Virus record (IMG/VR): IMGVR_UViG_3300034284_002638 | Coordinates: 37,674-101,673 of that record | Direction: 5' to 3' (one strand) | Source of the DNA: a virus | Length of the DNA: 64,000 bases | Shown: positions 1 through 43,009 of the stretch, one piece after another | Position numbering within the stretch: the stretch's first letter is position 1 | Layout: every line of letters begins with the position of its first letter | Position numbers and translations under genes: made by a program | The notes under the pieces: generated by a model | Databases searched by the model: none | The model's input: the letters and a program-made list of their open reading frames with translations, nothing else | What the model was told of the DNA's origin: nothing

Positions 1-243
1 GCGTATTACAATTCCGACCCTTGGCCTCCGAAGAGCGAGGACTGGCTGAGGCGCATACTCCGAACGGGAGCCTGGTTGGCAAGGGCGGATAACGCTGAAA
101 TTCAACTTGAGAAAGATCCCAACCTTTGTTCGTGTGCGGATCCCGGAGACTTCATGTGCCGGACATTCGGCGTCGTGGAGGCGACCATGATCCTCGTCCC
201 GAAGGAAATCGCAATCAAAATCATGACATTGGGGCTGCCGTGA
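1..243 (+). CDS. C-terminal part of a small paralogous-family protein (partial)
   Basis: The reading frame is open from the first base and ends at a TGA at 241-243; the start lies outside the window. The last residues, KEIAIKIMTLGLP, match the C-terminal motif of eight other small proteins between 240 and 5323 (acidic residue, x, Ala, three residues, Leu, x, hydrophobic, Gly, often ending in Pro). The body contains Trp-rich and CSCADP-type sequence not shared with the siblings. The TGA overlaps the GTG start of the next gene. Function is unknown; membership of the family is seen directly, and the role is not inferable. Confidence 0.7.
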   Translation, partial: AYYNSDPWPPKSEDWLRRILRTGAWLARADNAEIQLEKDPNLCSCADPGDFMCRTFGVVEATMILVPKEIAIKIMTLGLP

Positions 244-530
244 ACAGAGAATCAATCTCCAAACTGGAGCACATGTTTCGTGATAGTTTCTTTAGGCTTT
301 ACGACATGTATTTCAGACATGAGCCCGTCATCAAACACGATTGTGTCATGCTGAAGTGGACCGAATTCTTGAAGGGTCATGGATGCTATTTTCTTTTAAA
401 GGGCCGTCTTGTTGAGCCAGTGAATCATCCGAAAGGCTTCGTGCTCGTGTCCGACCCCATCAGGTGCAGAACAATAGCGGCCCCGACAGAATTCGCCCTA
501 AAGGCTCTGTATTTTGGCGAAATCCCATGA
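240..530 (+). CDS. Small paralogous-family protein (member 2)
   Basis: A protein of 96 residues. The GTG start at 240 overlaps the upstream stop as GTGA, so I prefer it to the longer in-frame TTG further upstream. It contains a WTEFLKGHG segment, like the W-x-x-(Y/F)-L segments in siblings, and ends in EFALKALYFGEIP, a variant of the shared C-terminal motif. There is no signal peptide, membrane segment or recognised domain. It is coupled to both neighbours by 4-nt overlaps. Function unknown. Confidence 0.75.
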   Translation: MNRESISKLEHMFRDSFFRLYDMYFRHEPVIKHDCVMLKWTEFLKGHGCYFLLKGRLVEPVNHPKGFVLVSDPIRCRTIAAPTEFALKALYFGEIP

Positions 531-847
531 GCATGGATACTTTTTTAGACCAACTCAACCTCAAGGTGTACCGGCTCTTCAGAGAGAAGGGCAAGGAACT
601 GAAGGGTGCGGGCTTGTTCTCCGAAGAGGGTTGGCTGGAGTACATACATTCGCTGGGGTGCGAAACCTCCGACAAGCAATCCTGCACCCGGTGTGGCAAG
701 ACCAGCATCATCCCTTATGACTCAAAGATGATTGTCTTCAGGGACGAACATTTTATTCGGGAAAAGGACGGATCAAAATACTACGACCGAATGATATTGG
801 TAGACACAGAAACGGCATTCAAGATCGTCGCACTGGGACTGCCATGA
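527..847 (+). CDS. Small paralogous-family protein with CxxC pair (member 3)
   Basis: A protein of 106 residues starting at the ATG that overlaps the previous stop (ATGA). It has the family layout: a helical N-terminal part with EEGWLEYIHSLG, a variable centre, and the end ETAFKIVALGLP. The centre holds C-ETSDKQS-CTRC, so three cysteines could form part of a metal site that most siblings lack. It sits in the coupled cassette. Function unknown; family membership rests on the C-terminal motif and gene position. Confidence 0.8.
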   Translation: MSMDTFLDQLNLKVYRLFREKGKELKGAGLFSEEGWLEYIHSLGCETSDKQSCTRCGKTSIIPYDSKMIVFRDEHFIREKDGSKYYDRMILVDTETAFKIVALGLP

Positions 848-1140
848 TAACCCGAGAAAACAAGGACAAGATCGCCCAACTCATTCAAGAGTCCACCTCG
901 CATCCGAAATTGAAGTTCTCGGACACGCTCCCGAAGAAGTCCGGGATGAGCTTCTTCCAAGAGGAACTCCTCAAACTCGGGATAAAGGAAGTAGAGAAGG
1001 ACAAGGGCAAATTCGACAGCAAGAAGCACATAATCATTGATCTGGGGTGGCCCGTCAGAAGCGGCAAAGTGCTGAAAGTTCCAACCCCGTTGGCCATAAA
1101 GATTCTGGCGTTGGGCTTTTTTCCTTGGAAGATACAATAG
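844..1140 (+). CDS. Small paralogous-family protein (member 4)
   Basis: A Lys-rich protein of 98 residues that starts at the ATG overlapping the upstream stop. The C-terminal region PLAIKILALGFFPW carries the family motif, followed by three extra residues. The centre alternates charged and hydrophobic stretches. The TAG stop at 1138-1140 lies 14 bases before the next start. Function unknown. Confidence 0.75.
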   Translation: MITRENKDKIAQLIQESTSHPKLKFSDTLPKKSGMSFFQEELLKLGIKEVEKDKGKFDSKKHIIIDLGWPVRSGKVLKVPTPLAIKILALGFFPWKIQ

Positions 1141-1154
1141 TTTTGGAGACACTC

Positions 1155-1397
1155 ATGGACGACGCCGAGAAACAAGATTTTGAACTCAATCCCGTCTCCC
1201 TCAAGACGGCCGGAACTATGAAGGTGCGCTATGTAAACGGGGACAAACTCAAGCCAGTGCAACTTGAAGATGGCGGACTAACATCCGGACAGCGGGATGC
1301 GATAAGAATCGCCTTGGTACATTTGATCTTGGCCTCGGTGAAAGACCCCTCGCTAGAAAAACACATTGAAACACTCAGGGACATGATTGAAGCATGA
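1155..1397 (+). CDS. Small hypothetical protein
   Basis: A protein of 80 residues. I chose the ATG at 1155 because GGAG lies 6 bases upstream; an in-frame upstream start would overlap the preceding gene by more than 90 bases. It is acidic and mostly helical in appearance, and it lacks the C-terminal motif of its neighbours. The stop overlaps the next start (ATGA). No family recognised. Confidence 0.65.
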   Translation: MDDAEKQDFELNPVSLKTAGTMKVRYVNGDKLKPVQLEDGGLTSGQRDAIRIALVHLILASVKDPSLEKHIETLRDMIEA

Positions 1398-1612
1398 GCA
1401 AATTGGGAAGAACCGCGTGGTGCCTGCGTTCGCCGAAGGGGAGGCTTGTCATCAAGACGCTCCATTCAAGCCGATCCGCATGTCTGGAGTTGAGCATCCC
1501 GTGCTTCAGATTCAAGCATAACTGGCTCCAGCCTTTTAACAGGACATGGAAGGAAGCCAGAAGTCTCGGGTGGAGCGTTGTCCTTGTGGATATCAAGGAA
1601 AAATCAAAATGA
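1394..1612 (+). CDS. Small basic hypothetical protein
   Basis: A basic protein of 72 residues, rich in Arg, Lys, Ser and Trp, with two cysteines near the middle. It starts at an ATG overlapping the previous stop and ends in an ATGA overlap with the next gene. There is no signal peptide or recognised domain. Position within the coupled cassette is the main support that it is a real gene. Confidence 0.6.
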   Translation: MSKLGRTAWCLRSPKGRLVIKTLHSSRSACLELSIPCFRFKHNWLQPFNRTWKEARSLGWSVVLVDIKEKSK

Positions 1613-1719
1613 ACATTTTTCAAAAACTCAATACTCCGATAACTGTTCCTAAATGGAAGTATGCTCTTTTGTGGCTTTTGGTGTTTATGACCGCCGTCAC
1701 TCACATGTTTAAGAAGTGA
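1609..1719 (+). CDS. Small membrane protein, 36 residues
   Basis: A very short gene whose ATG overlaps the upstream TGA. The product has a basic N-terminal segment and then one strongly hydrophobic stretch (YALLWLLVFMTAV) ending in HMFKK, so it looks like a single-pass inner-membrane peptide. Many T4-like phages carry such small membrane peptides. No function can be assigned. A 9-codon open frame at 1742-1771 between this gene and the next is too short to call. Confidence 0.5.
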   Translation: MNIFQKLNTPITVPKWKYALLWLLVFMTAVTHMFKK

Positions 1720-1763
1720 CCGTCGGCCAAAGGAAAAACACATGACTGAGTCAAAGGTGAATA

Positions 1764-2126
1764 ATGAGTGAACAAGAACCTGTGGCGTGGGCTCTTTATC
1801 CGCCTCTTGATGAAACGCCAAAAAAGCCAGTGATGGTATTTCAATGCCTAAAAGATGCGAATGATGAAGCGATTGAGTCCGGGTGTGATATCGTCCCTCT
1901 GTACCGCCAATCGCGGTGGATTCCTATAACGGAACAACTCCCCCCAGAGGGCGAGCGCGTTTTGTTTTACTTGGACGATCCGTTGACAGAGGTGAATCTT
2001 GGATGGTGGGAGGGCAAGCACACGCACGGCAAAGCGATTGCCATGGAGTACGGAGATGCCGACGGCGATTGGCTCCCGTGTAGCCACTGGATGTCGCTTC
2101 CGACCACAACGAGTGAACAAAAATGA
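1764..2126 (+). CDS. DUF551-domain protein
   Basis: A protein of 120 residues. The second half matches the DUF551 pattern found in many phages and prophages: W-x-P-I-x-E-Q-L-P-P-E-G-E-R-V-L-F-Y at about residues 51-68, then a later H-W-M-x-L-P near the end. The first half begins EPVAWALYP and reaches VPLYR, resembling an N-terminal module often seen fused to DUF551 in phage proteins. The biochemical role of DUF551 is unknown. The stop overlaps the next ATG. Confidence 0.8.
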   Translation: MSEQEPVAWALYPPLDETPKKPVMVFQCLKDANDEAIESGCDIVPLYRQSRWIPITEQLPPEGERVLFYLDDPLTEVNLGWWEGKHTHGKAIAMEYGDADGDWLPCSHWMSLPTTTSEQK

Positions 2127-2200
2127 GAAGAACAAACCAGATAGTCGGCATGGTCAACTTCCCGGTGGACTCGGATCAGTACGAGAGCACCAAGGTATGA
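2123..2200 (+). CDS. Micro-ORF, 25 residues
   Basis: A 25-residue frame starting at an ATG that overlaps the DUF551 gene stop and ending in TGA at 2198-2200. It may be a real coupled micro-gene, a truncated gene, or only a spacer that keeps ribosomes moving between its neighbours. The product, MRRTNQIVGMVNFPVDS followed by a charged tail, matches nothing I recognise. Confidence 0.35.
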   Translation: MRRTNQIVGMVNFPVDSDQYESTKV

Positions 2201-2244
2201 TTAGGTTGCATACGCTGCCAACCCCAGTGACGAGATGTAGATGA
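2197..2244 (+). CDS. Micro-ORF, 15 residues (translational relay?)
   Basis: A 15-codon frame that starts at an ATG overlapping the stop of the 2123 frame and ends at a TGA overlapping the next gene's ATG. The double overlap is the only evidence. It is more likely a coupling relay than a functional peptide. Confidence 0.2.
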   Translation: MIRLHTLPTPVTRCR

Positions 2245-2651
2245 AACCGAGAAAGCAAAAAAAAATGAACGACGAACAGAAAACTTGGTTGAAAGTTCTC
2301 CTTTATTTAGTTGCAATCATATCATTGGTTTCTTTCTTGTGTTATTTGGACAATGAGTGGAGAGAGAAGATGGGCTCCGCCATCTTTTGCCCCAAGGGCG
2401 TCAAGCCGAACAATGTGGTGGAACGCTTCCACGAACACCAAGAAGTCAAGGTCTTGGAAAAGGGTACCGACGAGGTCGTAAGGACCTACGGAAGGGTGCG
2501 GCTCACTTTCCTCTCCAAGGATTCGTTCATGATACAGGACGACAACACAGGGAACCCCATCCTGCTTCTCGTGCAACTCAAACCCAACGAATATGTCACG
2601 GCGTTCACGAAAACTGAAAATTTTGAAGCCAAGGCTTGGGGTTTAAAATGA
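2241..2651 (+). CDS. Membrane-anchored small hypothetical protein
   Basis: A protein of 136 residues. A Lys-rich start is followed by one hydrophobic segment (about residues 17-35, VLLYLVAIISLVSFLCYL), so it is probably a type II single-pass membrane protein with a soluble C-terminal part of about 100 residues. That part begins with NEWREKMG and looks like a small beta domain. ATGA overlaps occur on both sides. No family recognised. Confidence 0.7.
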   Translation: MKPRKQKKMNDEQKTWLKVLLYLVAIISLVSFLCYLDNEWREKMGSAIFCPKGVKPNNVVERFHEHQEVKVLEKGTDEVVRTYGRVRLTFLSKDSFMIQDDNTGNPILLLVQLKPNEYVTAFTKTENFEAKAWGLK

Positions 2652-3061
2652 ATGAGTCTTGTGCCGATCCCGACGCCCCGCTCGAGAGCTGCTTCGTGTG
2701 TGGAAAATCCATCCACACCTGCGAAAGGAAAGAGGCCGTAAACAACAGCTATCTCTGTCCCGTTCATGGCGACGGGTGGCAGAGGGGCGATGGGGCTTGG
2801 ATCTGTAGCGAGGAGTGCGACCAGAAGTATGAAGCCGACAAGCCCCGCCACTCCAGCTTAAAGTTCTTCCACCCCTTCAACTTCGTCTTCGTCAAGAGGC
2901 CGAAGACGGACGATCCCAACTGGCACCCCAGTGACGACCTTCACCAATATGGATTCAGCCTTGACCTGACTACCGAACTTTATTTCTACACCTACGACTG
3001 GGGCCGGGGTTTTAACTTCAGGGTATTGGGATTCGGATTCGAGGTGTGCTTCAACCCATGA
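2648..3061 (+). CDS. Cys-rich putative zinc-binding protein
   Basis: A protein of 137 residues. The first 60 residues contain CFVCGKS, HTC, LCPVH and CSEECD, enough Cys and His ligands for one or two zinc sites; the C-CxxC spacing is like a zinc ribbon. The C-terminal half is rich in aromatic residues and may be beta-structured. The start is the ATG overlapping the previous stop. Function unknown. Confidence 0.7.
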   Translation: MNESCADPDAPLESCFVCGKSIHTCERKEAVNNSYLCPVHGDGWQRGDGAWICSEECDQKYEADKPRHSSLKFFHPFNFVFVKRPKTDDPNWHPSDDLHQYGFSLDLTTELYFYTYDWGRGFNFRVLGFGFEVCFNP

Positions 3062-3267
3062 ATATCGAAAACGAGTTCCACACGGCGATCCTTCTGACGA
3101 TCGACCTGCACCGCCTGGTCACCGCCGGGCAAGGCGAGTCGGAGGAAGCCGACATCGTCCGCGAAACGCTGGGCAGTCTGCTGCTGACATTAGAGAAGGA
3201 CGACAGCGACCTTTGCGCTAAGGTATCGGCGAGGCTAGACTGGTACGAGAGATGGTATAGACAATGA
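3058..3267 (+). CDS. Small acidic helical protein
   Basis: A protein of 69 residues, starting at an ATG that overlaps the previous TGA. It is rich in Leu, Glu and Asp with predicted helices, and ends DWYERWYRQ. It shares no motif with the paralog family around it. Function unknown. Confidence 0.65.
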   Translation: MNIENEFHTAILLTIDLHRLVTAGQGESEEADIVRETLGSLLLTLEKDDSDLCAKVSARLDWYERWYRQ

Positions 3268-3347
3268 AAATAAAAAAGCTCACGGCGGACCTCAGCCGAA
3301 GTGCAACCCGTACACAGCATTCGATGAAAAGGTGGATGTATGACTAA
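3264..3347 (+). CDS. Micro-ORF, 27 residues, basic
   Basis: A 27-codon frame beginning at the ATG that overlaps the previous TGA and running past the start of the next gene at 3340. The product is basic (MKIKKLTADLSRSATR and so on). The two overlaps fit the coupled layout, but there is no other support. Confidence 0.35.
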   Translation: MKIKKLTADLSRSATRTQHSMKRWMYD

Positions 3348-3594
3348 AACTTGGGATTTCACCCTCGTGCTGAAGGGGGTGTCGGACTTGACCGACGATC
3401 TGGCCGACGCCCTTTTTGAGGCGGGATGCGACGACGCGACCCATAGCATGGTGGGCGGCAAGCCTCTTCTTGATTTCTCCAGGGAGGCGGAATCGCTCGA
3501 GGAAGCCGTCTTGACCGCCTTGGAAGACATCCGGCGGGCCGGCGAGATGCTGGGTGTCCCTTTGGATGTGGAACGCATTGGAGATGAACTGTGA
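3340..3594 (+). CDS. Conserved small hypothetical protein
   Basis: A protein of 84 residues. The pattern DFTLVLKGV, then LADALFEAGCDDA, then DFSREAESLEEAVLTALEDI, resembles a small conserved family found mainly in bacteria, sometimes next to or fused with helix-turn-helix genes. Its biochemical role is not known to me. Unlike its neighbours it looks like a gene of bacterial descent. The stop overlaps the GTG of the next gene. Confidence 0.7.
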   Translation: MTKTWDFTLVLKGVSDLTDDLADALFEAGCDDATHSMVGGKPLLDFSREAESLEEAVLTALEDIRRAGEMLGVPLDVERIGDEL

Positions 3595-3833
3595 AACTCT
3601 CCGACGACAACATCAAAAAGCTTGAAGTTCTTCTTCGCAACGCACTTGCGATTAGATCAATGGGTCCTGAGGCTCTGCCTGCGAGTAGCGGCATTTTTTT
3701 GGCAGACATGATGTACGATTTCAGCGAATTCCCGAAGGGTTTCGTGCCGGTGAATCTCGGGATGGAGTATTACGCCTTGATTCCCAATGAACTAGCCATG
3801 AGGGCGTTGACCCTCGGCCACCTTGAATTTTAA
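3591..3833 (+). CDS. Small paralogous-family protein (member 5)
   Basis: A protein of 80 residues. The GTG start at 3591 overlaps the upstream TGA. It has a short centre with FPKGFVPV, related to HPKGFVLV in member 2, and ends in NELAMRALTLGHLEF, the shared C-terminal motif. Function unknown. Confidence 0.75.
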   Translation: MKLSDDNIKKLEVLLRNALAIRSMGPEALPASSGIFLADMMYDFSEFPKGFVPVNLGMEYYALIPNELAMRALTLGHLEF

Positions 3834-3836
3834 ACC

Positions 3837-4223
3837 ATGAATTCCGATAAATTCTGGGCACGGGAGGCCCTCAACAAACTCACCGAAGTCCTCACTGGAG
3901 CCATCGGCCCGCCCTTCCCGGTTCAACAGAACCAGCCCTTGCCCCATCCTCCATTTTTGGAGAAGTGGAGGGAATTCTGTATAAAACACAAAATCAAGCC
4001 GGGAGCCCCCGACTTCTATGTCAAGGGCGCTCACTACACCGACAAGTCCGTTGCGGACTTCTATGATTTTGAAGAAGTGCCAATGTACTACGATCATAAA
4101 AACACGGTCGTTGTCCTCAACCCCTTCTTCGGCCAAAAGTCAGAGGAAGACTTTCTCAGATACAAATGGCTTGAAATAGACGCGGAACTGGCGGTGAGGT
4201 TCCTTGTGCTAGGTCTCCCATGA
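3837..4223 (+). CDS. Small paralogous-family protein (member 6)
   Basis: A protein of 128 residues starting 3 bases after the previous stop. It has a W-R-E-F-C segment where siblings have W-x-(E/R)-(Y/F)-L, a long variable middle rich in Tyr, Phe and Asp, and the C-terminal motif AELAVRFLVLGLP. The stop overlaps the next ATG. Function unknown. Confidence 0.8.
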   Translation: MNSDKFWAREALNKLTEVLTGAIGPPFPVQQNQPLPHPPFLEKWREFCIKHKIKPGAPDFYVKGAHYTDKSVADFYDFEEVPMYYDHKNTVVVLNPFFGQKSEEDFLRYKWLEIDAELAVRFLVLGLP

Positions 4224-4615
4224 GCGAAAATAAAAGCATATCCAAGAGGGCTTTTGAACTCTTGTACGACGAGTTCAGCAAGATCACTCACATGTCTCAC
4301 TGGTCTTATGGCGATCATCGTCGCCCCACGGGCACGAACCGAATGCTATACAGATGGGACAGATACCTCAAGAAACTCGGTGGGGTTCGAAGGGAGACGC
4401 TGAAGGATTTCCTGATCGACTTCAAGCCGAAACTGAGGGATGACCAGTTCGTAGCCGTAGATCCGGCCACGAAGTTCTACAACAGGGGCGGATCTGACGG
4501 CAGGGTCAGGATGCTCGTCATCGACAAGGACTTCGCGCTCAAGATGCTTACGATTGGCCCCCCAGACATCAGGGAAATGAAGTACAGGGTTCCACGGGAC
4601 TGGGAGGCGGAATGA
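4220..4615 (+). CDS. Small paralogous-family protein (member 7)
   Basis: A basic protein of 131 residues. WDRYLKKLG matches the family W-x-x-Y-L segment. The motif KDFALKMLTIGPP is internal, followed by about 18 extra residues, so the motif need not be the extreme C-terminus. ATGA overlaps occur at both ends. Confidence 0.8.
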   Translation: MSENKSISKRAFELLYDEFSKITHMSHWSYGDHRRPTGTNRMLYRWDRYLKKLGGVRRETLKDFLIDFKPKLRDDQFVAVDPATKFYNRGGSDGRVRMLVIDKDFALKMLTIGPPDIREMKYRVPRDWEAE

Positions 4616-5007
4616 GTTCCACGAACTGGTCCAAGAAGAAATTAAAAAAGGCTCCCCTTCCTTGGATTCGTGCTCCATGGGAACTCAAAGATCCGACCCA
4701 TCGGAAGATCATGCTCGTAATTAATCAATCCTTTGAAAGAATGTTCGGTCACAAGTTCACGCTCAGTTGCTCCGAGAGGAGATTGTGGGGAGAGTTCTTG
4801 AACGAGAGAGCCATACATTGGAAGATAAAACTCCCCCGACAGCCCGCGGATTGCGACTCCTGGAATGGTTGGAATTTTGTGGTGTGCCCAAAGGACTCGG
4901 TTCTTTTGGCCCAACCAAAGAACCTAGAGGGCTATGTGGAGGTCGGCAAATTCTTTATTCCTGAGGATCTAGCCACAAGAATGCTGGTTCTGGGGGAGCT
5001 GCTATAA
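4612..5007 (+). CDS. Small paralogous-family protein (member 8)
   Basis: A basic protein of 131 residues. LWGEFLNERAI corresponds to the family W-x-x-F-L segment, the middle is variable and Trp-rich, and the end EDLATRMLVLGELL is the shared motif. It starts at an ATG overlapping the previous stop. Function unknown. Confidence 0.8.
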   Translation: MSSTNWSKKKLKKAPLPWIRAPWELKDPTHRKIMLVINQSFERMFGHKFTLSCSERRLWGEFLNERAIHWKIKLPRQPADCDSWNGWNFVVCPKDSVLLAQPKNLEGYVEVGKFFIPEDLATRMLVLGELL

Positions 5008-5008
5008 A

Positions 5009-5323
5009 ATGTATTCAAGCAACGGAACAAGTCTCATCACCGAGATCGAGGCCAAACTAGGAGATCTGATGAGGGATGGTTTTCCCCACGACGGAACATA
5101 TTCAGAATATCACAAGGCCAAAGATAAATTTCTCGCATGTATAGAGGCCAACGGAATAAGGCTTATGTCCTTCTGGGATTATACGGAAACGAAGAAGAAA
5201 AAAACGACCGGGATCAACCTTGCCCCAAGCCCGTTCTCAACTCCAGGCAGGGAAGACCATTATGTCGTATTCGACGACGAACTAGCGACGAGGGTGTTGG
5301 CGTTGGGCTTTCTTCCTAGATAA
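5009..5323 (+). CDS. Small paralogous-family protein (member 9)
   Basis: A protein of 104 residues, starting one base after the previous stop. It ends DELATRVLALGFLPR, the family motif plus one residue. It is the last gene of the cassette and meets the leftward nuclease gene end to end at 5323/5324 with no intergenic base. Confidence 0.8.
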   Translation: MYSSNGTSLITEIEAKLGDLMRDGFPHDGTYSEYHKAKDKFLACIEANGIRLMSFWDYTETKKKKTTGINLAPSPFSTPGREDHYVVFDDELATRVLALGFLPR

Positions 5324-5989
5324 TCATTCGTCTATTGCTTGGCGTCTGACCTCTTGCCCCAACTTGTTGATCCTCTGCTCGGTGTATACCTCAAACTTCC
5401 AGCCCCGCACCTTGCACGCCTCCTCTGCCGCACGCCACTTGTTCTTGTTCATCTCAAGGTCGGTCTGGTTGGACGGCTTGATCTCCCAAAGCTGCTTGGT
5501 GCCGTCCATGAAGTTCACGATGAGGTCGGGCGTGTACCTGTGGGCCTGCCCTTGGTGTATGTAATCTATCTGGAACGGTTCGGAGTAGAACGACTCAACA
5601 TCGTCATGCTGATCCAGTATCTTGTAGACCTTCTCCTCCAGGCCGCTCCTGTAGCCCAAGACCCTCCCCGTCTTCGTAGATTCGTACTTGCCCTGCTTGA
5701 ACTTGGGCTTCCTCGTCTTCTTTCCCTTCTGCGAGAAGTCGTGCCACAGTATGGCCCGGGCCTGCCCGGCATAGTTTCTGAAGTCAAAGTTGGGATGCTT
5801 GACCTTCATATGAAGTTTGACATCCCTAACAGGTGCCCCGCAGTGCTCCAGGGGGCATCTCACAAACTCCCTGCCCTCCTCGTGGCTTTCCAAGATGTGC
5901 GACTTGAACTCCGCATAATCCTCGAACTGGACCCCGCAACAAAAGCACACGTATTTCTTGCCGGAACCGTCTGCGAAGGGGAGAGTCAT
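5324..5989 (-). CDS. Zinc-finger plus gp4/TnsA-like PD-(D/E)XK nuclease
   Basis: A protein of 221 residues. Residues about 14-67 hold two finger-like units: CFCC with H-x4-H, and CPLEHC with H-x4-H. Residues about 112-215 match the nuclease fold of T4 gp4 head-completion protein and TnsA: YRSGLEEKVYKILD, then RYTPDLIV, then LWEIKP, then a W-x-A-A helix and GWKFEVYTE. The Glu of SGLE, the Asp of TPD and E-x-K of EIK are the expected catalytic residues. It could act in head completion or as a free DNA nuclease. The fusion to fingers is unusual. The ATG overlaps the upstream stop. Confidence 0.8.
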   Translation of the reverse strand: MTLPFADGSGKKYVCFCCGVQFEDYAEFKSHILESHEEGREFVRCPLEHCGAPVRDVKLHMKVKHPNFDFRNYAGQARAILWHDFSQKGKKTRKPKFKQGKYESTKTGRVLGYRSGLEEKVYKILDQHDDVESFYSEPFQIDYIHQGQAHRYTPDLIVNFMDGTKQLWEIKPSNQTDLEMNKNKWRAAEEACKVRGWKFEVYTEQRINKLGQEVRRQAIDE

Positions 5990-7045: not shown

Positions 7046-7629
7046 TTGGAGAATTCCAAGAAAGGCAAAATAAGATCGTCAATCTTGGAATAAAGTTGAT
7101 CCAGGCTGCCGTCGTTCACCAGGAAAAAGTCCACCAGCCCGAAGTCCCCAGTTGAGCAATTGACCCGACCCTCAATGCCCTCCTTCAAGAAATATTCAAC
7201 AAACTCTCTTATCTGAGATTCTGAATCGTTCGGGTCATTGTTGATAAAGCCGGGTCTATAAATAAGTATATTTTTCCCACCCCTCTCTCTTACCGCAAGA
7301 AGTTCGTTCTTGTATCTGACATCGCTTATTATCAAAGATTTATGATCTATACGAAGAAGCATCTCGATCCATATTTCGTCTTTTATGCTCCTAAATCCGT
7401 CCCCTATAAACTGAAGGGCTTGTCGGACAGGTATCTTAAATCCCGGAGGAGGTTCCGAGACGGTCTTCCACTTCTCTATAAAATCAAGATCTACGCCAAA
7501 TGTCTCGCAAAAAATGCGTTTGACATTTGAGGCAAACGAGCCCCTACCCCAACCCAGCCTTTTGGCCAGATAGTCCGCCGTGACGTCCTTGCCCTGACGG
7601 AGCTGTCCCGCACAAGCCAACAATCTCAT
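7042..7629 (-). CDS. Deoxynucleoside monophosphate kinase (T4 gp1-like)
   Basis: A protein of 195 residues. The N-terminal MRLLACAGQLRQGKDVTADYLA is a P-loop of the G-x4-GKD-x-T type found in T4 gp1 and related dNMP kinases, which phosphorylate dNMPs to dNDPs for DNA synthesis. Later segments, including VRQALQFIGDGFRSI and IISDVRYKNELLAVRERGG, follow the layout of this family. It has its own sigma70-like promoter at 7653-7680. The substrate range cannot be read from sequence. Confidence 0.8.
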   Translation of the reverse strand: MRLLACAGQLRQGKDVTADYLAKRLGWGRGSFASNVKRIFCETFGVDLDFIEKWKTVSEPPPGFKIPVRQALQFIGDGFRSIKDEIWIEMLLRIDHKSLIISDVRYKNELLAVRERGGKNILIYRPGFINNDPNDSESQIREFVEYFLKEGIEGRVNCSTGDFGLVDFFLVNDGSLDQLYSKIDDLILPFLEFSN

Positions 7630-7950: not shown

Positions 7951-8229
7951 ATGGGAGACTGCTGCGGACAACAGTTCAAACGAGGCCGGCCTGGGTTGGC
8001 GGCCGATCCTAGTCAACAGTGCTTTGTGGACTGCTGCGACAAGTCTTGTCCGCCCGAAAACTGCTGCGATAGCATAACCATACACTTCGAGTGCGGACCC
8101 AAGGAGCCTCCAGAATGCACTTGCGACTGCATTTTTAATGGATACAGCTTCGGCGGCGTGACATTCAAGAAACGAATGCTTCCCACACCAACCCCAATTA
8201 CAACCCCTGGAGGGGGGTCGTCGCCATGA
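7951..8229 (+). CDS. Very Cys-rich small protein
   Basis: A protein of 92 residues with 16 cysteines, arranged as [22 protein letters not shown] and CTCDCIF. No signal peptide is seen. The spacing suggests several disulfides or metal sites. The C-terminal tail has the same TPTP-rich sequence that starts the repeat region of the next protein, so the pair may have related origin. The ATG follows the previous stop directly, and its own stop overlaps the next ATG. Confidence 0.65.
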
Positions 8230-9488
8230 TTGAAAATGAATGGCTAAAAAATAAAGCCGAATTCTCGGCCCTTAATTGCAACATGACCGTATCTGTCACA
8301 ATCCCGGCTGGGTATGCGGCAGATGTTTCAATAGAAGACGACATCAGTCCAGAAATATATGTAAATGTATCTGGGGTGGTCGGAACAGCAAGTTATACAG
8401 TTTCTAATATTGACCCCGATGCACTTCAACTTTGGGTCAATATTAGAAACTTTAGGTGCCTAGGCGGATCTTCGTTTGGCCTATCTTATGACCAGAGATT
8501 TTACAGAGATGTAGATTGCGGTGGAACAGTTTCTGTAACATATAACTCCGGTCCTGACATAGGCGGAGTACCAAGCATACCTTCTTGCTCAACGCCTACG
8601 CCTACACCTAGTAGAAGCCCTACACCTACCGCTACAGTCCCGCCCCCTACCCCTAGCAGAAGCCCAACGCCAAGCGTCACGGCAACCAGAACACCCACGC
8701 CAACGCCGAGCCGAAGCCCAAGCCCAACGCTCAGCGGCACAGTCACGCTCACGCCAACGCCGAGCCGAAGCCCAAGCCCAACGCTCAGCGGCACAGTCAC
8801 GCTCACGCCAACGCCGAGCCGAAGCCCAAGCCCAACGCTCAGCGGCACAGTCACGCCCACGCCAACGCCGAGCCGAAGCCCAAGCCCAACGCTCAGCGGC
8901 ACAGTCACGCTCACGCCAACGCCGAGCCGAAGCCCAAGCCCAACGCTCAGCGGCACAGTCACGCTCACGCCAACGCCGAGCCGAAGCCCAAGCCCAACGC
9001 TCAGCGGCACAGTTACCCCTTCACCCACCCCTTCGCCGTCCCCGTCGCCGACCCCTTCACCCACCCCTTCGCCGTCCCCGTCGCCGTCCCCGTCGCCGTC
9101 CCCTTCACCGTCCCCGACATGCGCCCCATGCGAATCGGTCCAAGTGACATTAACAACAAGCGGGTGTTGTCTTTACATGGCATCAAACACAATAGAAGCC
9201 GTGGGAAGCGGAGTTGTTTCAGCAACAATAAACCAGCCAGAAAACTGTCAAGTAACTTTGGCTCTTAACGGAATTGAAACGGATTCAATCGCGGTAGAGG
9301 ACGGAGATGAAATAACTGTGGAGATACACACAGAATCAAAATGCAAATGCTGCGAAACAAAAAGAGACTGCTCGCCCAATAGTTCGGGATTTATTGCCCA
9401 AGCAAGGAGCGGCAAAATATCCATAAACAAAAATGAACTAGCCAGAAGAATAAGGTTTATAGCAGAAAGATCAATATCAAGAAATTGA
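8226..9488 (+). CDS. Pro/Thr/Ser-repeat protein, probable virion surface or adhesin-like
   Basis: A protein of 420 residues. Residues 1-115 form a beta-rich N-terminal domain. Residues about 118-300 are low complexity: [10 protein letters not shown]-type sequence, six copies of an 18-residue unit ([18 protein letters not shown]), then a long (SP)n tract. Residues about 300-395 return to a Cys-containing beta-like domain (CAPC, CCLYM, CKCC). The layout, two globular domains joined by a stiff Pro-rich linker, fits a surface or fibre protein, but nothing proves this. The stop overlaps the convergent helicase gene. Confidence 0.7.
8697..9020 (+). repeat. Six tandem 54-bp coding repeats
   Basis: Exactly six units of 54 bases, in frame, encode the 18-residue Thr/Pro/Ser unit. 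They are nearly identical at DNA level, differing mainly in the last codon (Leu or Pro), which points to recent expansion by slippage or recombination. A less regular (SP/TP)n tract follows to about 9118. Confidence 0.95.
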
Positions 9489-11498
9489 TTTAACGCTATT
9501 CAATATTTCATGAATCTTCTCGTCCTTCATGTTCAAAAGGCGCTTGACAAGATGAGGATTCTTCAAAAGGTCAATTGGGCGCCTGAATCCAGCGGAATAC
9601 AACTTTTCTGCCCTTACCTTGCCAATGTTCGGAATCTTGCACAAGTCTATGAGTTCGGGGCGGACTCCGTAAACAACCCTTAAATACACGGAATTGAAAA
9701 AGTCCTTCCTGTTCCATTTTGCCGCCATAGAATCCAACATATTCAAAACAGAAACAAGACGCTCAGCGTCCATTTGAAGACCACGGGCAAAAGCAGTAAA
9801 AGAGCCGAGCTGCATACCATTTAAAAGACAATAATACGAATAGGCTCCCTTTATGGATGACTCAGGGTACTCTGATCCATGGGCGTCATAAACTTTAGAG
9901 GCAAAATCCTCCATCTCATCCTTCTCGGCTCTAGTGACAAATCCAGACCGTATTGAGTCTACATTGCCCAAAGCAAGAGACAAGGCAAAATCACTCTGAT
10001 CCAGGCCTCTTGAAAATAAAATTCTGAAATTCCTTCTAAGGTCGGCGACATCAAAAGGACTGTAGTACATTATGCTCGAGACCTTGCCGACAGAGGTAGC
10101 CTCGTAGTTTCCATCCACTTCCTTGATTGCGCCGACACGGGTCAAAAGATCTATTGTTTTGTCAACGATGGTGTCGTCTAGATCCTCATACTGGAAGTAT
10201 GCCAAGGATCTACCGTACCAATCATGAACATCGCTGATAGTTTTAATCTGTCCGTAATGAATCTCACTAACCAAGTGAAAGGCCAAAGTTTTATAGCGAG
10301 GATCATCCTCTTGGCCTACATAACTAAGAAGCTGAGACTCTATGTTCTTGGGCGAAGAAAGACGATCTATGTGATAATCTGATTCTCCGTAGGGAAGAAG
10401 TATGTGAACATCTCCCTTCGGATCATAACCCGGCCTACCTGCACGACCAGCCATCTGGAATATGTCGTATGTTTCAACTTCTGTCCTTCCTCGATGAACA
10501 CCAGCTATTATCACTCTGCGGGCGGGGAAATTACATCCCCATGCCAATGTGCTCGTGGCGACTATGACCCTCAAGTCACCAGATTTAAACTTCTGCTCTA
10601 CCTTGTGGCGCTTATCTTTGTCAAGGTCTGCGTTGTGCAGTTCGCACACGACACCACGCTCTTCAAGGGCCGACCTAATCCTCTCTCCCGTGGCCTTGGA
10701 ATGGACGAAGACTAGAAACTTATCCTCCTTGTGCTCCTTAATTAGATCTACGGCCGCACTGACCTTGTACTCCTCGGTGAGATCGTAGGTTTCGCCCGCG
10801 TCGTATTCCTCGTAGTGAATATCCAAAGGGCATGGCCTGTATTCCGAATGAACTAGATAGGTGTCTTTTTTAACAAGGCTGCACCCGACCCAATTTGCTA
10901 TCTGATCCACATTTGGCATTGTAGCCGAGAGAAAAACTATTCTAGGATCTCGGGCTATTTGAGAAAATTTCATGAGCCCAACTTCCAAATGGTCGCCCCT
11001 GGAGGGAACCGTCAGAAGATGCGACTCGTCAACGACAAGAGTCCCGCAATCCCTAAGGAATTCATTTTTTTCGGATTGAAGGTTCCGACATCTGGAGTTG
11101 AGCATCTCCGAAGTCATCACGATTATGTCGGCCTCGTTCAATTCCTTCATGCGGGCTTCCGTGAGACGGTAGTCGCCCGTGCATATTGAAATTTTAAGAT
11201 CAGAAAACAGCGACTTTTCCGAGAGCCAGTCATCTATTTTCTCCTTGGCCAAGGCTCGGAGAGGAGCGAGATATATTGCCTTCCCGCCGCGAGCCCTGAC
11301 CTCATGGCTCATAAACATCTCGGCGCAAACCGTCTTCCCAACACTAGTTGGAGCGGCAATTACGCAGTTGCAGTTCTTGTCATATATTTCAAAAACTCTA
11401 CTTTGAACTTGATTAAATGAATCAAAGGCGTACTTGCCGTAAGGAAACCTGGATGTTTCGACAAGACAAGTCTGATCAGACACTTTGATTAGAGACAT
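9477..11498 (-). CDS. Ski2/Hel308-like superfamily 2 helicase
   Basis: A protein of 673 residues. Motif I APTSVGKT is at 49-56, motif II DESH at 157-160, and motif III SAT at 191-193. Motif VI-type GRAGRPGYD and a long helical C-terminal region follow, and the end has a helix-hairpin-helix ([17 protein letters not shown]). This layout fits Ski2-like/Hel308 helicases that unwind forked DNA in repair; RNA helicase relatives share it. It is separate from the UvsW-type helicase at 29954, and Ski2-like helicases are rare in phages. It overlaps the 8226 gene end by 12 bases. Confidence 0.85.
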
Positions 11499-11543
11499 AA
11501 AACACCATTGAATTTGCCGAATACAAAACCAGTCAAACTAAAA

Positions 11544-11581
11544 CGGGGAGGGGGGATAAGTCTATTCAGCCCCCCTCCCCG
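11544..11581. other. Perfect 12-bp G/C hairpin
   Basis: CGGGGAGGGGGG pairs perfectly with CCCCCCTCCCCG across a 14-base loop. There is no T-tract on either side, so it is not a classical intrinsic terminator. The G-run strand (G4-A-G6) might also form alternative G structures. It lies between the helicase start and the end of the 11607 gene, so it could stop or protect the leftward transcript of the latter. Confidence 0.7.
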
Positions 11582-11606
11582 AACCCGCACCCCCACACCC
11601 AAACTT

Positions 11607-11891
11607 CTATCCCGCCTTAGTTTTCTTTGCCCTGGAGTCTGCCTCAATCAATGCGAATTCCCCGATGCTGTCAACTTTGTTAAACCAATCGTCAGGTCCA
11701 CTGGCCAGGGAAAGCCATCGGTCAATTTCCTTATCTCTCTGGAGGATTGAGCAGGCAAAAGAACGATCCCCCGCGACCTTCTGCGGCAGGGATTGACTTA
11801 TGTTTGCCAGATCATCGTCCGACATTCTAGAACAATATTCCTTAATCAATGTTATTTCCGATTTACCCAAGTTCTTTTTCACTTGAACCAT
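11607..11891 (-). CDS. Small hypothetical protein
   Basis: A protein of 94 residues, mostly helical in appearance, with a basic N-terminus (MVQVKKNLGKSE) and basic end (RAKKTKAG). No signal peptide or known motif. The start is close to a CATATATGG palindrome shared with the opposite strand. Function unknown. Confidence 0.6.
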   Translation of the reverse strand: MVQVKKNLGKSEITLIKEYCSRMSDDDLANISQSLPQKVAGDRSFACSILQRDKEIDRWLSLASGPDDWFNKVDSIGEFALIEADSRAKKTKAG

Positions 11892-12476: not shown

Positions 12477-12926
12477 TCAATAAAGATTCAGCTGCTCGGG
12501 GTTCATATACATGTATTCAAAACCTTCAAAAACCATAGGGGTAGTCTTTTCCTTTATAGGAGACAGTATCGGGCGGCCACGAGGATCCAAACAAACACTC
12601 CAGCAGTAAACCTTCCTGTCCTCTTGATAAAATTCTATAAGAGAGAGAAAATGTCCGCCCAGAACCTTTTTGGCTAGTTTCGCAACAATATGGAACGGTA
12701 AAAAAGGAGCATATTTGTTGTATACCTGAAAAGTCTCCAGGTAATGATCATTATATAAAGCGCGATTAAAATGAAATACTATGGTGTATCCATCAACCTC
12801 CGCCTCGCACTTTTTGAGCGGAGCTATATGATACTCCATCTCAACAGGACCCATCGGAAAATTGTATGGAACTAAGTCCGAAGCAAGATTTTTCATAATC
12901 TCTATCTTTTCATCGAACTTGGCCAT
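12477..12926 (-). CDS. Hypothetical protein
   Basis: A protein of 149 residues with alternating hydrophobic and charged sequence, rich in Tyr and Phe; no recognised motif. The start ATG follows a GAGG ribosome site and a GATAAATAA box (about 12945), close to the T4 late consensus TATAAATA. This suggests late expression. Function unknown. Confidence 0.65.
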   Translation of the reverse strand: MAKFDEKIEIMKNLASDLVPYNFPMGPVEMEYHIAPLKKCEAEVDGYTIVFHFNRALYNDHYLETFQVYNKYAPFLPFHIVAKLAKKVLGGHFLSLIEFYQEDRKVYCWSVCLDPRGRPILSPIKEKTTPMVFEGFEYMYMNPEQLNLY

Positions 12927-13042
12927 CTATTTTTCCTCAAAATTATTTATCCCTTTTAGGATTAGAAAAATCCAAAATGCATCAAAAAACGCATTGACCA
13001 ATTATACATTGGCTGCTATATTAGATGCAATAGGAGAAAAAC

Positions 13043-13276
13043 ATGTCCACAAAATGCTTGCTTCTGGAGACCAAGGACAAAAAAAGAATTTTTACCTTGA
13101 TAGGAAACAAAAAGCACCTCAAGGAATATTGCAAGGCCTTTGGAGCAAAAATGTTTGTAGTCAAGGCAGAAATAGAAAAATCAAAGATAATGGATCTTCA
13201 ACAACTGGTTCCGGCCTTGTGCGACAAAAACTACAAAAGTTTCAAGGTGGAATTTGAGGTAGTTAAGTCCGAATAG
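13043..13276 (+). CDS. Small hypothetical protein
   Basis: A Lys-rich protein of 77 residues with four cysteines. ATAGGAG lies 8 bases before the ATG, and TATATTAG lies further upstream. The preceding gap (12927-13042) holds only these signals. It converges on uvsX. Function unknown. Confidence 0.65.
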   Translation: MSTKCLLLETKDKKRIFTLIGNKKHLKEYCKAFGAKMFVVKAEIEKSKIMDLQQLVPALCDKNYKSFKVEFEVVKSE

Positions 13277-13286
13277 TCTGGGTGCT

Positions 13287-14474
13287 TCAATCCGACTCGC
13301 CCAAAAGATTGCCAACATCCTGGTGCGTGTCGATCTGCTCTACGTCTTCACTGTTCGTAAGAGCGATAGCTTCCGACCACTCCTTCAAATATTCCTTGAC
13401 CTCATCCGCATTCTCAGCATCTATGAGAGCCGGATACTTTATCAGAATCTCAGGGTCAAACGGGGCGGACTTGGCCTGCTGGAAGGTGGCCTCCTCGTCG
13501 CCGCCATTCCAAGGCGAAAGTATTCTGTATTTTCCAGCCCCCTTGCCGGGTTCAACCCTTTTGGACATCAAAATGGCATCCATGAGGCCGCCAAGAGGGT
13601 TGATTCCAGAGTCATAAAAAAGAGGCACATTTTCAATCTTGATCCCGGGCGTGAAATGTCTGTTTTTCTTGTTCACTATGGTCATGTTGGTTCCAAGCGA
13701 CAACTTCGTACTCTTGTCCTGGAAGGCTTTGGGAGATCCGGTGCGGAACCTCAGGGAGGCATAAAACTTGAGAGCCTCGCCGCCGCCAGAAGTGGTCTCA
13801 TCATTTCCATAAATTACGCCAATCTTCTTGCGAACCTGGTTGATGACATAAAGGGTCGCATCCTTGTCGTTCAAGAACGGATTGAGACTCCTCAGAATCT
13901 TGTTGGCAAATTTCGCCCGCTCGCCGGGACGCTCATTGCCCACCGCGTCGCGCTCGGCCTTGGTAGCATTCTCGGGAAGGTCAACCTCGCTCCACTCCCT
14001 ATCGGTGGGATTGACGCCTATGGAGTCCCAAACGATCCCGATTGGCTTCTTGGGAAACTTTGCCCGAATGGCATTCACCACTGTGATTATCTTCTTTTCA
14101 ACCTGCTGGAGGGTTACGGGATCAAAGACCAAAAGCTTATCAGGATCAACATGGCCACACCGCTCGGCAAAATCAGAGCCGCTCGAGCGTTCGCAGTCCA
14201 AAAGGACTGCAATTCCGCCCTGCTTCTGAATGGCTCCGAGAAAGCAGTAGCCCAAGAGGGACTTGCCAGATGCCTCAGGACCAAATGCCTCAATTATTCT
14301 TCCTCCGGGAAACCCTCCCTTAATGAATTTGCCGCTGCAGGCGTAATTGATGGCCAAGTTGCCGGTGTTTACATAATAAGGCACCTGCCCCGCGTTACGC
14401 AGCAGTTCGCCACCGGTGGACTCCAGTATTTCGTCCAAAACGGAATCATCGTTCTTTGTTTTTGACTTGGCCAT
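13287..14474 (-). CDS. uvsX: UvsX/RecA-like recombinase
   Basis: A protein of 395 residues. Walker A is GPEASGKS at 65-72, followed by the RecA-fold segments VLLDCERSSGSDFAERCG, a Walker B-like IGIVWDSIGV, and ATLYVINQVRKK. In T4-like phages UvsX forms the presynaptic filament on ssDNA for recombination-dependent replication with gp32 and UvsY. It lies next to the SSB gene, separated by a strong hairpin. The acidic C-terminal tail is typical. Confidence 0.93.
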   Translation of the reverse strand: MAKSKTKNDDSVLDEILESTGGELLRNAGQVPYYVNTGNLAINYACSGKFIKGGFPGGRIIEAFGPEASGKSLLGYCFLGAIQKQGGIAVLLDCERSSGSDFAERCGHVDPDKLLVFDPVTLQQVEKKIITVVNAIRAKFPKKPIGIVWDSIGVNPTDREWSEVDLPENATKAERDAVGNERPGERAKFANKILRSLNPFLNDKDATLYVINQVRKKIGVIYGNDETTSGGGEALKFYASLRFRTGSPKAFQDKSTKLSLGTNMTIVNKKNRHFTPGIKIENVPLFYDSGINPLGGLMDAILMSKRVEPGKGAGKYRILSPWNGGDEEATFQQAKSAPFDPEILIKYPALIDAENADEVKEYLKEWSEAIALTNSEDVEQIDTHQDVGNLLGESD

Positions 14475-16745: not shown

Positions 16746-17462
16746 TTATCTCCTCCTAATATCGGGCATGTCTACTTGTTCGTAATTTCCCCAAAGATTA
16801 ATCTCTTCCTTCTGCGTCTCGGCCCCGACATACTTTGGGCCCTCGTCGGCTTCAATCAGTCCAGACCCAACAGCAACAAAGTACTCGGCACTAACTTTAA
16901 CATCCTTGCCCGAGTCGTCGGTAGTGTTGTAAACCAATGTGGATCCCAATGACTCCTCGGAATAAACAGGATATTTCTTGCCCAAAGTGAACTTCAAGCC
17001 CTTTTGCCTGACCTTTTGCTGCCCTATGGGGTCAGGGTCGTACACTTCCTGTCGTATTGCTCTACGGGCAAGGTTCTGGGATTTCTGGTTCCTCACGACA
17101 GGGCATGACCTGTCGGCCAACTCCTTGGAGGGGGAAGGCACGGGCTTGAAATCATCTTCGGATTCAAACTCTTCAGTAACAATGACCCTGCCCGAATCAA
17201 AACTGAATTTCTTGTTTTTTATGACTATGCCGTCGCTGGTTTCTCTGTAGCCAAGCTTCTTCTTGGCATACTCATAGATCTCCACATCAACTATAAGGAT
17301 ATTTCTTCTGGCGAGTTGCGACATTATCTTTCCGGCAATAGCGTCCAGCTCTATTTCTTCCGTTATCTTTCCTACCTTGCAGTTTCTGGTCTTGATCTCG
17401 TCTTCATAAACGCCGGGCCGATCTGTCGCGTCTTTATAGTGAAATACAATTTCATATCCCAT
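16746..17462 (-). CDS. Hypothetical protein
   Basis: A protein of 238 residues. I placed the start at ATG 17462 (MGYEIVFHYKDATDRPG) because AAGGAAG lies about 7 bases upstream; a longer frame would run into the preceding gene. An N-terminal alpha/beta part is followed by a Ser/Pro-rich linker and a C-terminal beta part with LKFTLGKKYPVYSEE, which looks SH3-like. Function unknown. Confidence 0.6.
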   Translation of the reverse strand: MGYEIVFHYKDATDRPGVYEDEIKTRNCKVGKITEEIELDAIAGKIMSQLARRNILIVDVEIYEYAKKKLGYRETSDGIVIKNKKFSFDSGRVIVTEEFESEDDFKPVPSPSKELADRSCPVVRNQKSQNLARRAIRQEVYDPDPIGQQKVRQKGLKFTLGKKYPVYSEESLGSTLVYNTTDDSGKDVKVSAEYFVAVGSGLIEADEGPKYVGAETQKEEINLWGNYEQVDMPDIRRR

Positions 17463-17505
17463 CTGGGTCTTCCTTGTTTTGCAACCTATACTAGTAAGAC
17501 TGGCG

Positions 17506-18120
17506 TCATTTCTGGGCGAGCCCTGTGCCGTATCTTGTATTAAAAATGACAAACGGCCTATTCTTCGCCTTGCAGAAGTCGGAAAAAACATCCTTGTTAT
17601 CTGCTAAGTGATCGACGCAAATGAATCCATCCAAATTCAAATACTCCCAGCAAGCCTCCAAATCTTCCTTGATCTTATCGCCATTGACCTTCTCCGTGAC
17701 CATGATCAAATCAAAACTAGAAGACATTTTGCCGATGAACTCTGCATCCACCACGCTCCCGTAGTGGTAATCTACAAGAAAGTTCTTTCCCTTTATGTCC
17801 CTTATATTGGAAATAGCTATTCTAGGAGAGTAGAAATCCTTGCTTGACCTCTGAAAACAAAGCATCCGTTCCACTGAGGGGCAGCCTTGCAAAAAACAAC
17901 AAGAAGGAAGACCCAAGTTGAATCCCAAGTGAAGAAGAGATTTAGTTTGGATCAGCTTGCCAAGATGATAATAAAAAGGCAGATAGTTTGGATCTTGATA
18001 TTGGCTGCTTTTTCTGGAGGATTCGTCTATGAGACGCAACTTGTCAAGGAGAACGCGGGGGCCAACCGCCTGGCCCTTGAGCTTGGCCGACAAGACCGGA
18101 TGAATCTGTTCTATGGTCAT
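17506..18120 (-). CDS. Methyltransferase-fold protein, tentative
   Basis: A protein of 204 residues. LLHLGFNLGLPSCCFLQG resembles the first glycine-rich loop of class I SAM-dependent methyltransferases, and later FDLIMVTEKVNGDKIKEDLEACW and LNLDGFICVDHL fit beta4-beta5 of that fold. The SAM-binding acidic residue is not obvious, so it may be inactive or another Rossmann-like enzyme. Its ATG overlaps the upstream stop. Confidence 0.5.
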   Translation of the reverse strand: MTIEQIHPVLSAKLKGQAVGPRVLLDKLRLIDESSRKSSQYQDPNYLPFYYHLGKLIQTKSLLHLGFNLGLPSCCFLQGCPSVERMLCFQRSSKDFYSPRIAISNIRDIKGKNFLVDYHYGSVVDAEFIGKMSSSFDLIMVTEKVNGDKIKEDLEACWEYLNLDGFICVDHLADNKDVFSDFCKAKNRPFVIFNTRYGTGLAQK

Positions 18121-18767
18121 GCAGCACCACTCAAAAGGCAGTGCTCCAACCCAATCAACTGCAAAAACACTCTCATGTCCTTCTCCGAAGACTCATCTCT
18201 AGATGAGTAATAATTCCATATCAAAAGATCAACCTTCGCTACAGACATTCCGGATCTGTCTACAAGACCCAAAAATTCGCCTTCAAGAAACAAATAGGAT
18301 TTTTTTCCAGGCGTGGTCTTAGGAGCATCGTAGCCGATCATCCTCATGAATTTTAAAAGATGCACATCAAGCCCAGCAAACCTCGCTCCTCTCCTGCTGT
18401 GGAGCAGAAAACACCTTGCCGTTTTGGGGCCAATGCCTCTCACGGACTCAAGATCATAAACGGAACAAGTTTTAAGGTCTAATCCCTTTTGGGCAAGATC
18501 CATCATGGATTTGCCTTTGTTGTTGTAGCATCCGATACCATGAACCCTAAGTTCTTCTGAAAGATCAGCCCCAAACATCCGTATAATTTCAAAAGGCTCG
18601 TCCGCTACAAACTTGCCCTTGCCGCGCAACATAAGACGGTTCAAATTGGCTGCTGCGGTGGAGGCCTTCTTCCCGGCGGCACATATCCAAAACAACAACA
18701 TAAGTTGCAACTCGTAATCGTTGCAGTCAAATTTAGTTATATTGCTCGGGTCTATGAGGTAGTTCAT
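18117..18767 (-). CDS. HhH-GPD (endonuclease III-like) DNA glycosylase
   Basis: A protein of 216 residues from the ATG at 18767 (a longer in-frame start would overlap the lipoprotein gene). The helix-hairpin-helix VRGIGPKTARCFLL has the Lys at the catalytic position of endonuclease III, and GLDVHLLKFMRMIG carries the conserved Asp about 18 residues later. No C-terminal 4Fe-4S cysteine cluster is seen. It probably removes damaged or modified bases in phage or host DNA. Confidence 0.75.
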   Translation of the reverse strand: MNYLIDPSNITKFDCNDYELQLMLLFWICAAGKKASTAAANLNRLMLRGKGKFVADEPFEIIRMFGADLSEELRVHGIGCYNNKGKSMMDLAQKGLDLKTCSVYDLESVRGIGPKTARCFLLHSRRGARFAGLDVHLLKFMRMIGYDAPKTTPGKKSYLFLEGEFLGLVDRSGMSVAKVDLLIWNYYSSRDESSEKDMRVFLQLIGLEHCLLSGAA

Positions 18768-24609: not shown

Positions 24610-24660
24610 CTTCAATCCTTTGTTCCTCTGAGAATTATGTTTGTGTAAACCGGGGGCCAT

Positions 24661-26543: not shown

Positions 26544-26547
26544 TTAA

Positions 26548-27306: not shown

Positions 27307-27312
27307 GATACT

Positions 27313-27320
27313 TATTTATA
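27313..27320 (-). promoter_or_regulatory. Late-type TATAAATA box before the protease gene
   Basis: A perfect match, on the minus strand, to the T4 late promoter consensus TATAAATA, 6 bases upstream of the protease ATG. Confidence 0.6.
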
Positions 27321-27392
27321 TCTAAGCGATTTTAATATATTAGGATTTTTTCCAATAATCCGTCGTCAAAATTACGAATAATTCGCTTGGAA

Positions 27393-27641: not shown

Positions 27642-27642
27642 C

Positions 27643-27968: not shown

Positions 27969-27973
27969 CCGTA

Positions 27974-42982: not shown

Positions 42983-43009
42983 CAGCCATACAAACAGGAG
43001 AACATCTAT

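What the first reader, a model, noticed from the sequence alone, without database searches (positions are those of the whole stretch)
1..5323. Nine-member array of small proteins with one shared C-terminal motif and variable bodies
Nine genes (1, 240, 527, 844, 3591, 3837, 4220, 4612, 5009) end in or near (acidic)-x-A-x-(K/R)-x-L-x-(L/I/F)-G, often with a final Pro, while their bodies differ in length (80-131 residues) and sequence. Several also share a W-x-x-(Y/F)-L segment. This looks like repeated duplication with a fixed docking tail and diversified recognition part, as expected of accessory factors that share one partner. No family I know has this layout.
Basis: partly seen in the sequence, partly recalled or inferred. 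Interest (0 to 1): 0.85.

Follow-up and report, generated by a model that had tools for sequence, protein, structure and literature searches.

The report
Phage island of 32 related genes
A T4-like phage known only from metagenomes carries a 24-kb island built largely from 32 diverged copies of one small protein family that matches no database family, solved structure or sequenced phage isolate; the island sits at different places in related phages, so these are probably swappable tools for dealing with particular hosts, but what they bind is unknown.

Summary
The nine genes and their shared tail are real. They are the end of a larger array: the record (G000) has 32 copies, all on one strand, in a ~24.3-kb island, and an HMM finds 86 members in four different viruses, clearly separated from decoys. 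The bodies are not unrelated: members align full-length, and two AlphaFold models give one confident fold (helix-helix-three strands-helix) without a match in PDB or BFVD. The "tail" is the last strand and helix of that fold, with a near-invariant K/R (85/86), so it is not a separate docking peptide, though a shared binding face stays possible. Orthologues are under purifying selection (dN/dS 0.08-0.29); paralogues keep the tail (39% identity) but not the body (15%). Tail DNA doubles as ribosome-binding site and ATGA/GTGA start of the next gene. The island's border genes are adjacent in four relatives; in two of these the array lies elsewhere. No relative was found in Pfam, PHROGs, NCBIfam, PADLOC, 50,697 phage records or GTDB genomes. 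Best reading: an accessory island of small effector paralogues, probably counter-defence or host-takeover factors. Family, fold prediction and island are shown; function is inferred.

The parts
1..5323 (+). Right-hand end of the ~24.3-kb accessory island (record C1 ~18.66-43.0 kb) that holds the 32-copy array
   Evidence: Border genes adjacent in G003, G004, G006, G008; G+C ~50.5% for most of it against ~46% outside
1..243 (+). Family member 1; starts 39 bases before the window (record 37635), 93 aa, tail LVPKEIAIKIMTLGLP
   Evidence: E 8e-12
240..530 (+). Family member 2, GTG start overlapping member 1 by 4 nt, 96 aa; AlphaFold model pLDDT 87.7; nearest paralogue record 28324-28617 (56%)
527..847 (+). 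Family member 3, 106 aa, overlaps member 2 by 4 nt; orthologue in G003 (44%)
844..1140 (+). Family member 4, 98 aa, overlaps member 3 by 4 nt
   Evidence: E 1.5e-12
3591..3833 (+). Family member 5, GTG start, 80 aa; shortest and weakest of the nine, lacks the W-x-x-Y-L segment
   Evidence: E 4e-7
3837..4223 (+). Family member 6, 128 aa; pairs with G003 60103-60501 in the tree
4220..4615 (+). Family member 7, 131 aa, C-terminal extension after the tail; relative in G004 (36%)
4612..5007 (+). Family member 8, 131 aa, tail ends LGELL; relatives in G003 and G004 (35%)
5009..5323 (+). Family member 9, 104 aa, last gene of the island
   Evidence: E 3e-13
507..530 (+). Example of a tail whose DNA is also the junction to the next gene (...GGCGAAATCCCATGA); same arrangement at 220-243, 824-847 and 4200-4223
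   Evidence: this example itself has a weak SD; the group as a whole is biased
1141..3594 (+). Companion genes inside the island, not of the family, one with a DUF551 match (1764-2126)
5324..5989 (-). Border gene outside the island: TnsA-like/phage endonuclease I-like nuclease; core gene with relatives in G003, G004 (81-82%), G006 and G008

Best explanation
This is an accessory island of a divergent T4-like phage, made largely of one expanded family of ~80-155-aa single-domain proteins (helix-helix-beta-beta-beta-helix). Neighbouring members are often translationally coupled: the codons of the conserved tail (L-G-x-x-P) also supply a Shine-Dalgarno-like sequence and an ATGA or GTGA overlap that starts the next gene, so a cassette can be gained, lost or moved and still be expressed. 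Each copy keeps its own body between viruses, while paralogues share only the scaffold and last helix, so the copies probably have different targets. Inferred mechanism: they are small non-enzymatic binders that block host defence or redirect host proteins, with the conserved last helix either holding the fold together or contacting one common partner. Shown: family, fold prediction, island, coupling signature, purifying selection. Inferred: counter-defence or host-takeover role, early expression, any common partner.
For: 86 members separated from decoys; one predicted fold, no known fold match; dN/dS 0.08-0.29; orthologue body 61% / tail 72% against paralogue body 15% / tail 39%; core genes 73-93% identical among G000, G003, G004 while most array members lack close orthologues; site empty in four relatives and array elsewhere in two; border sequences agree in independent records; different G+C (120); overlaps and SD bias. 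Small accessory proteins of this size in variable phage regions have been shown to act on host functions and defences (PMC12373910).
Against: No functional, expression or interaction data; host unknown. No member matches a known counter-defence protein. The promoter scan is only weakly enriched in the island (25 found against 15.1 +/- 4.3 in shuffles) and not in the window part. Purifying selection between orthologues does not show the positive selection expected of an arms race.
Confidence: 0.5

Rival explanations
1. The tail is conserved only because it is the structural signature of the fold (helix N-cap P-x-E, buried A/L face, Gly-x-Pro C-cap) and because its DNA starts the next gene. There is no shared partner; each paralogue is an independent small protein.
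For: Tail is strand 3 plus helix 3 of the model; SD bias and 4-nt overlaps; P alternates with D/S as helix-capping residues.
Against: K/R in 85/86 and E/D in 79/86 at positions expected to be exposed is more than a fold usually needs; the motif is kept where no gene overlaps.
Confidence: 0.4
2. The proteins are phage regulators or nucleic-acid binders, each copy controlling a different gene set.
For: Small, basic residues conserved in helices 1 and 3; weak fold hits to winged-helix proteins.
Against: Those hits have E >= 0.7 and probability <= 0.12; topology is not that of a winged helix; 32 diverged regulators would be unusual.
Confidence: 0.12
3. They are injected internal head proteins comparable in role to the T4 internal proteins, delivered with the DNA to block host nucleases.
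For: T4 internal proteins are small, variable accessory proteins and act against restriction (PMC12373910).
Against: No shared N-terminal propeptide is visible in the alignment; array is not next to head genes; dozens of different injected proteins would be unusual.
Confidence: 0.07
4. A neutral or selfish pile-up of duplicated gene fragments without function.
For: Copies are many, short and rearranged; one ORF reads into what looks like a tail-fibre remnant (record ~22.0 kb).
Against: dN/dS 0.08-0.29; open frames and conserved motif across viruses whose silent sites differ by 39-60%.
Confidence: 0.03

Closest known systems
Variable accessory-gene regions of T4-like phages (host-takeover and counter-defence genes; e.g. 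PMC12373910)
   Same: Small proteins in a variable region of a T4-like phage; core conserved, accessory content turns over.
   Different: Known regions hold many unrelated families; here one family of one fold makes up 42% of a 24-kb island in 32 copies.
Archaeal-virus early anti-defence genes found by shared regulatory sequences (PMC11065993)
   Same: Many small genes in one virus tied together by a shared sequence element.
   Different: There the shared element is an upstream promoter motif and the proteins differ; here the shared element is the 3' end of the gene, both protein motif and start signal of the next gene.
Multigene families of large eukaryotic DNA viruses (own knowledge: African swine fever virus MGF families)
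   Same: Arrays of diverged paralogues of one family in variable genome parts, with gain and loss between strains.
   Different: No sequence or structural relation tested or suspected; bacterial host; much smaller proteins.
Translational coupling by ATGA stop-start overlap (PMC6728339)
   Same: 4-nt overlaps with an optional Shine-Dalgarno sequence inside the upstream gene.
   Different: Here the upstream element is a conserved protein motif repeated in nearly every paralogue, so each gene can carry the start signal for whichever gene follows.

Membership tests
Any Pfam / PHROGs / NCBIfam / PADLOC family | Match above curated or clearly significant score in several members | tested here: not met
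   Nine window members: nothing. 80 members: only scattered weak hits, best FeoA 2 members E 2e-4, homing endonuclease 2 members E 3e-4
FeoA domain | Small SH3-like beta-barrel (own knowledge) | tested here: not met
   Only 2 of 80 members match weakly; models show three strands and three helices, no barrel
HicB antitoxin | Sequence match over the domain and a HicA toxin partner gene | tested here: not met
   Best E 1.2, 40 columns; partner gene not specifically searched
Known fold in PDB or BFVD | Foldseek match with significant E-value and TM-score | tested here: not met
   Best E 0.74 (PDB) and 0.84 (BFVD), probability <= 0.25
T4-like accessory island | Located in a T4-superfamily phage, discrete and variable between close relatives | tested here: met
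   Carrier genes; empty site and relocation
Early host-takeover / counter-defence genes | Expressed early; acts on a host or defence target | not testable with these tools
   Promoter-like sites weakly enriched in the upstream part only; no activity data
Docking-tail model (shared partner) | Conserved exposed surface that binds one partner in several members | tested here: inconclusive
   K/R 85/86 and E/D 79/86 in the last helix; exposure inferred from helix periodicity only; no complex prediction or pull-down possible

The most novel reading that the evidence does not exclude
A modular effector platform: a new protein fold with a constant C-terminal strand-helix that engages one host factor and ~30 interchangeable bodies that redirect or block different targets, encoded as cassettes in which the constant protein module also carries the start signal for the next cassette.
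Probability: 0.2. Interest if true: 0.88.

Novelty: new variant of a known kind. Interest (0 to 1): 0.64.

Why it matters
A single orphan fold expanded to 32 copies in one phage, under purifying selection and carried as an island that changes place, points to a function worth keeping in many versions; host-specific counter-defence is the obvious candidate. It gives a defined set of testable genes (nine in this window, 86 in all) and a simple rule (conserved tail plus ATGA) for finding more. It also shows how a conserved protein end can double as the translation link between tandem cassettes, which may explain how such arrays change without losing expression.

Tried and rejected
Known families and folds (53, 64-66): no real match. 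DNA and protein searches of 50,697 phage records: none. Three GTDB pattern hits are chance frames in Bacteroidota; L019 in IMG/VR is a chance antisense frame. Free C-terminus as degradation or docking signal: unlikely, many members carry extensions after the Pro. Chimeric assembly as source of the island: disfavoured, independent records agree at the borders. Neutral duplicates: rejected by dN/dS. Recent tandem duplication of the whole array: rejected, the tree interleaves the genomes. Absence of the family from G006/G008 is not claimed as biological: G006 stops before the G003/G004 site and G008 ends ~2.8 kb past its flanking gene. Literature searches for phage multigene arrays gave nothing closer; a search for the sample number gave none.

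Full report
OBSERVATION. All nine ORFs exist at the stated coordinates on the + strand and end in the stated motif. A six-frame scan of the 64-kb window finds these nine and one spurious 39-aa frame. The window is bases 37674-101673 of a 101,673-base IMG/VR virus record, G000. Upstream DNA holds many more copies.

FAMILY. From a 27-member alignment, iterated HMM searches of ORFs from the fetched records converge at once on 86 members: 32 in G000 (all +, record 19.3-43.0 kb), 27 in G003, 19 in G004, 7 in G005 (an eighth with a degenerate tail was seen) and one outside the array in G002. Members score E <= 6e-6; reversed or shuffled decoys start at E 0.59. G000, G001 and G002 are three records of one virus (100% identity in the compared stretches), so the 86 come from four viruses. 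The alignment shows shared features along the whole length: K-L in helix 1, W-x-x-Y-L-x-x-x-G, N/D-P, and the tail. In the tail K/R is kept in 85/86, E/D in 79/86, A in 79/86, G in 82/86, and P in all 78 that align there.

FOLD. AlphaFold models of window 240-527 and of an upstream member are confident (pLDDT 87.7 and 87.3, pTM 0.78 and 0.79) and share one topology: two helices, three strands, one helix. The conserved tail is strand 3, helix 3 and its Gly-x-Pro cap, i.e. part of the domain. Foldseek finds nothing credible in the PDB (best E 0.74) or BFVD (0.84). Pfam, PHROGs, NCBIfam, PADLOC and PDB sequence searches find nothing credible. The two models rest on nearly the same alignment, so they are not independent tests.

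DISTRIBUTION. Degenerate-DNA scans of IMG/VR for the tail hit only records of these viruses plus one false positive. A GTDB scan gave three chance frames. One DNA stretch and three proteins, one of them a made-up consensus, found nothing significant in 50,697 phage records. The pattern scans miss diverged single copies, so the family may be wider.

SELECTION AND TURNOVER. Orthologues are 61% identical in the body and 72% in the tail; within-genome paralogues 15% and 39%. dN/dS is 0.08-0.29 in 11 orthologue pairs and one paralogue pair. The tree interleaves the genomes: most duplications predate the split of these viruses and only about three pairs are recent. Core genes stay close (UvsX 92-93%, helicase 73-79%, TnsA-like nuclease 81-82% between G000 and G003/G004), whereas about 15 of the 32 G000 members have a clear G003 orthologue and none has a close one in G004.

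ISLAND. A UvsX search found three more relatives, G006-G008 (89-91%). G000 is collinear with G006 and G008 on both sides of the array, and the border genes of the array (G000 18203-18661 or 17165-18202, and 42997-43692) lie next to each other in G003, G004, G006 and G008. So ~24.3 kb, 42% of it family genes, sits at a site that is empty in four relatives; its G+C is ~50.5% for most of its length against ~46% outside. Two records of the same virus cross the left border identically and one carries the right border gene. In G003 and G004 the array lies elsewhere, beyond the gene matching G008 146409-147983, together with several of the same non-family companions. The G000 virus also keeps one member, matching the last member of the G003/G004 arrays, on the far side of the core block and in the other orientation (G002 26430-26801). 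This fits relocation of the array as a block (inference). No flanking repeats were found. G006 and G008 hold no member, but G006 does not reach the G003/G004 site and G008 ends soon after it, so true absence is not shown.

TRANSLATION. Of 31 neighbouring pairs in G000, 12 overlap by exactly 4 nt and 20 lie within 10 nt. The tail codons read roughly YTN-GGR-(NNN)-NTN-CCR-TGA: a G-rich stretch about five bases before an ATG or GTG made by the Pro codon and the stop. In genes ending ATGA/GTGA the tail pairs better with the anti-Shine-Dalgarno sequence than synonymous recodings (mean -5.7 vs -4.2 kcal/mol, p 3e-7); in the others it does not (p 0.15). Gly codons are GGR in 32/40 overlapping and 23/41 other tails, against 49% in bodies. 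The amino-acid motif persists where no gene overlaps, so it is also kept as protein. Stop-start overlaps are known to couple translation, with variable help from the SD (PMC6728339).

CARRIER. A T4-superfamily myovirus: UvsX-like recombinase, ssDNA-binding protein, DnaB-like helicase, SbcC/SbcD-like pair, ribonucleotide reductase, tail sheath, far from every isolate. Host unknown.

MECHANISM. The pattern (one scaffold, many diverged and individually maintained bodies, accessory island, coupled chains) fits small host-directed binders, as found among phage accessory genes by function screens (PMC12373910). Whether the last helix has one common partner is open. The E/D and K/R, spaced i and i+4, would be on the outer face if the hydrophobic positions face inward (inference from periodicity); they may form a salt bridge or an interface.

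VERDICT. Observation confirmed and enlarged.

Noticed in passing
G003 record 24642-28019 (L033:100-3420): The UvsW-like helicase gene of the relative G003 carries a ~400-aa in-frame insert with intein-splicing and LAGLIDADG matches; the G000 copy (window 9477-11498) has none.
   Followed up: yes
L002:9114-9476, 9768-10229, 11424-11828 and G003 relatives: A subgroup of the family carries a second conserved motif after the tail, P-D-S-P-S-I-E-x-M-R, shared between viruses.
   Followed up: no
record G000 C1 21981-22424 (L002:2481-2924): The N-terminal part of one family ORF looks like a tail-fibre fragment (V-G-D-G-V-T-A-W-T-E-L-P-Y) and matches an ORF outside the array in G003, a possible recombination scar.
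   Followed up: partly
L002 4560-4965 / 13027-13435, 7487-7595 / 12703-12811; record 23812-24084 / 41001-41267: Companion genes inside the island are also duplicated (86-91% DNA identity for two segments), so the island has had segmental duplications beyond the family.
   Followed up: partly
window 8226-9488: 420-aa ORF with a long proline-threonine-serine repeat (S-R-S-P-T-P-T... type), a mucin-like low-complexity protein.
   Followed up: no
G002 record 1-31.6 kb (L029, L030): About 31 kb of the same virus, beyond the left end of G000, has almost no match to the otherwise collinear relative G008: a second large variable region.
   Followed up: partly
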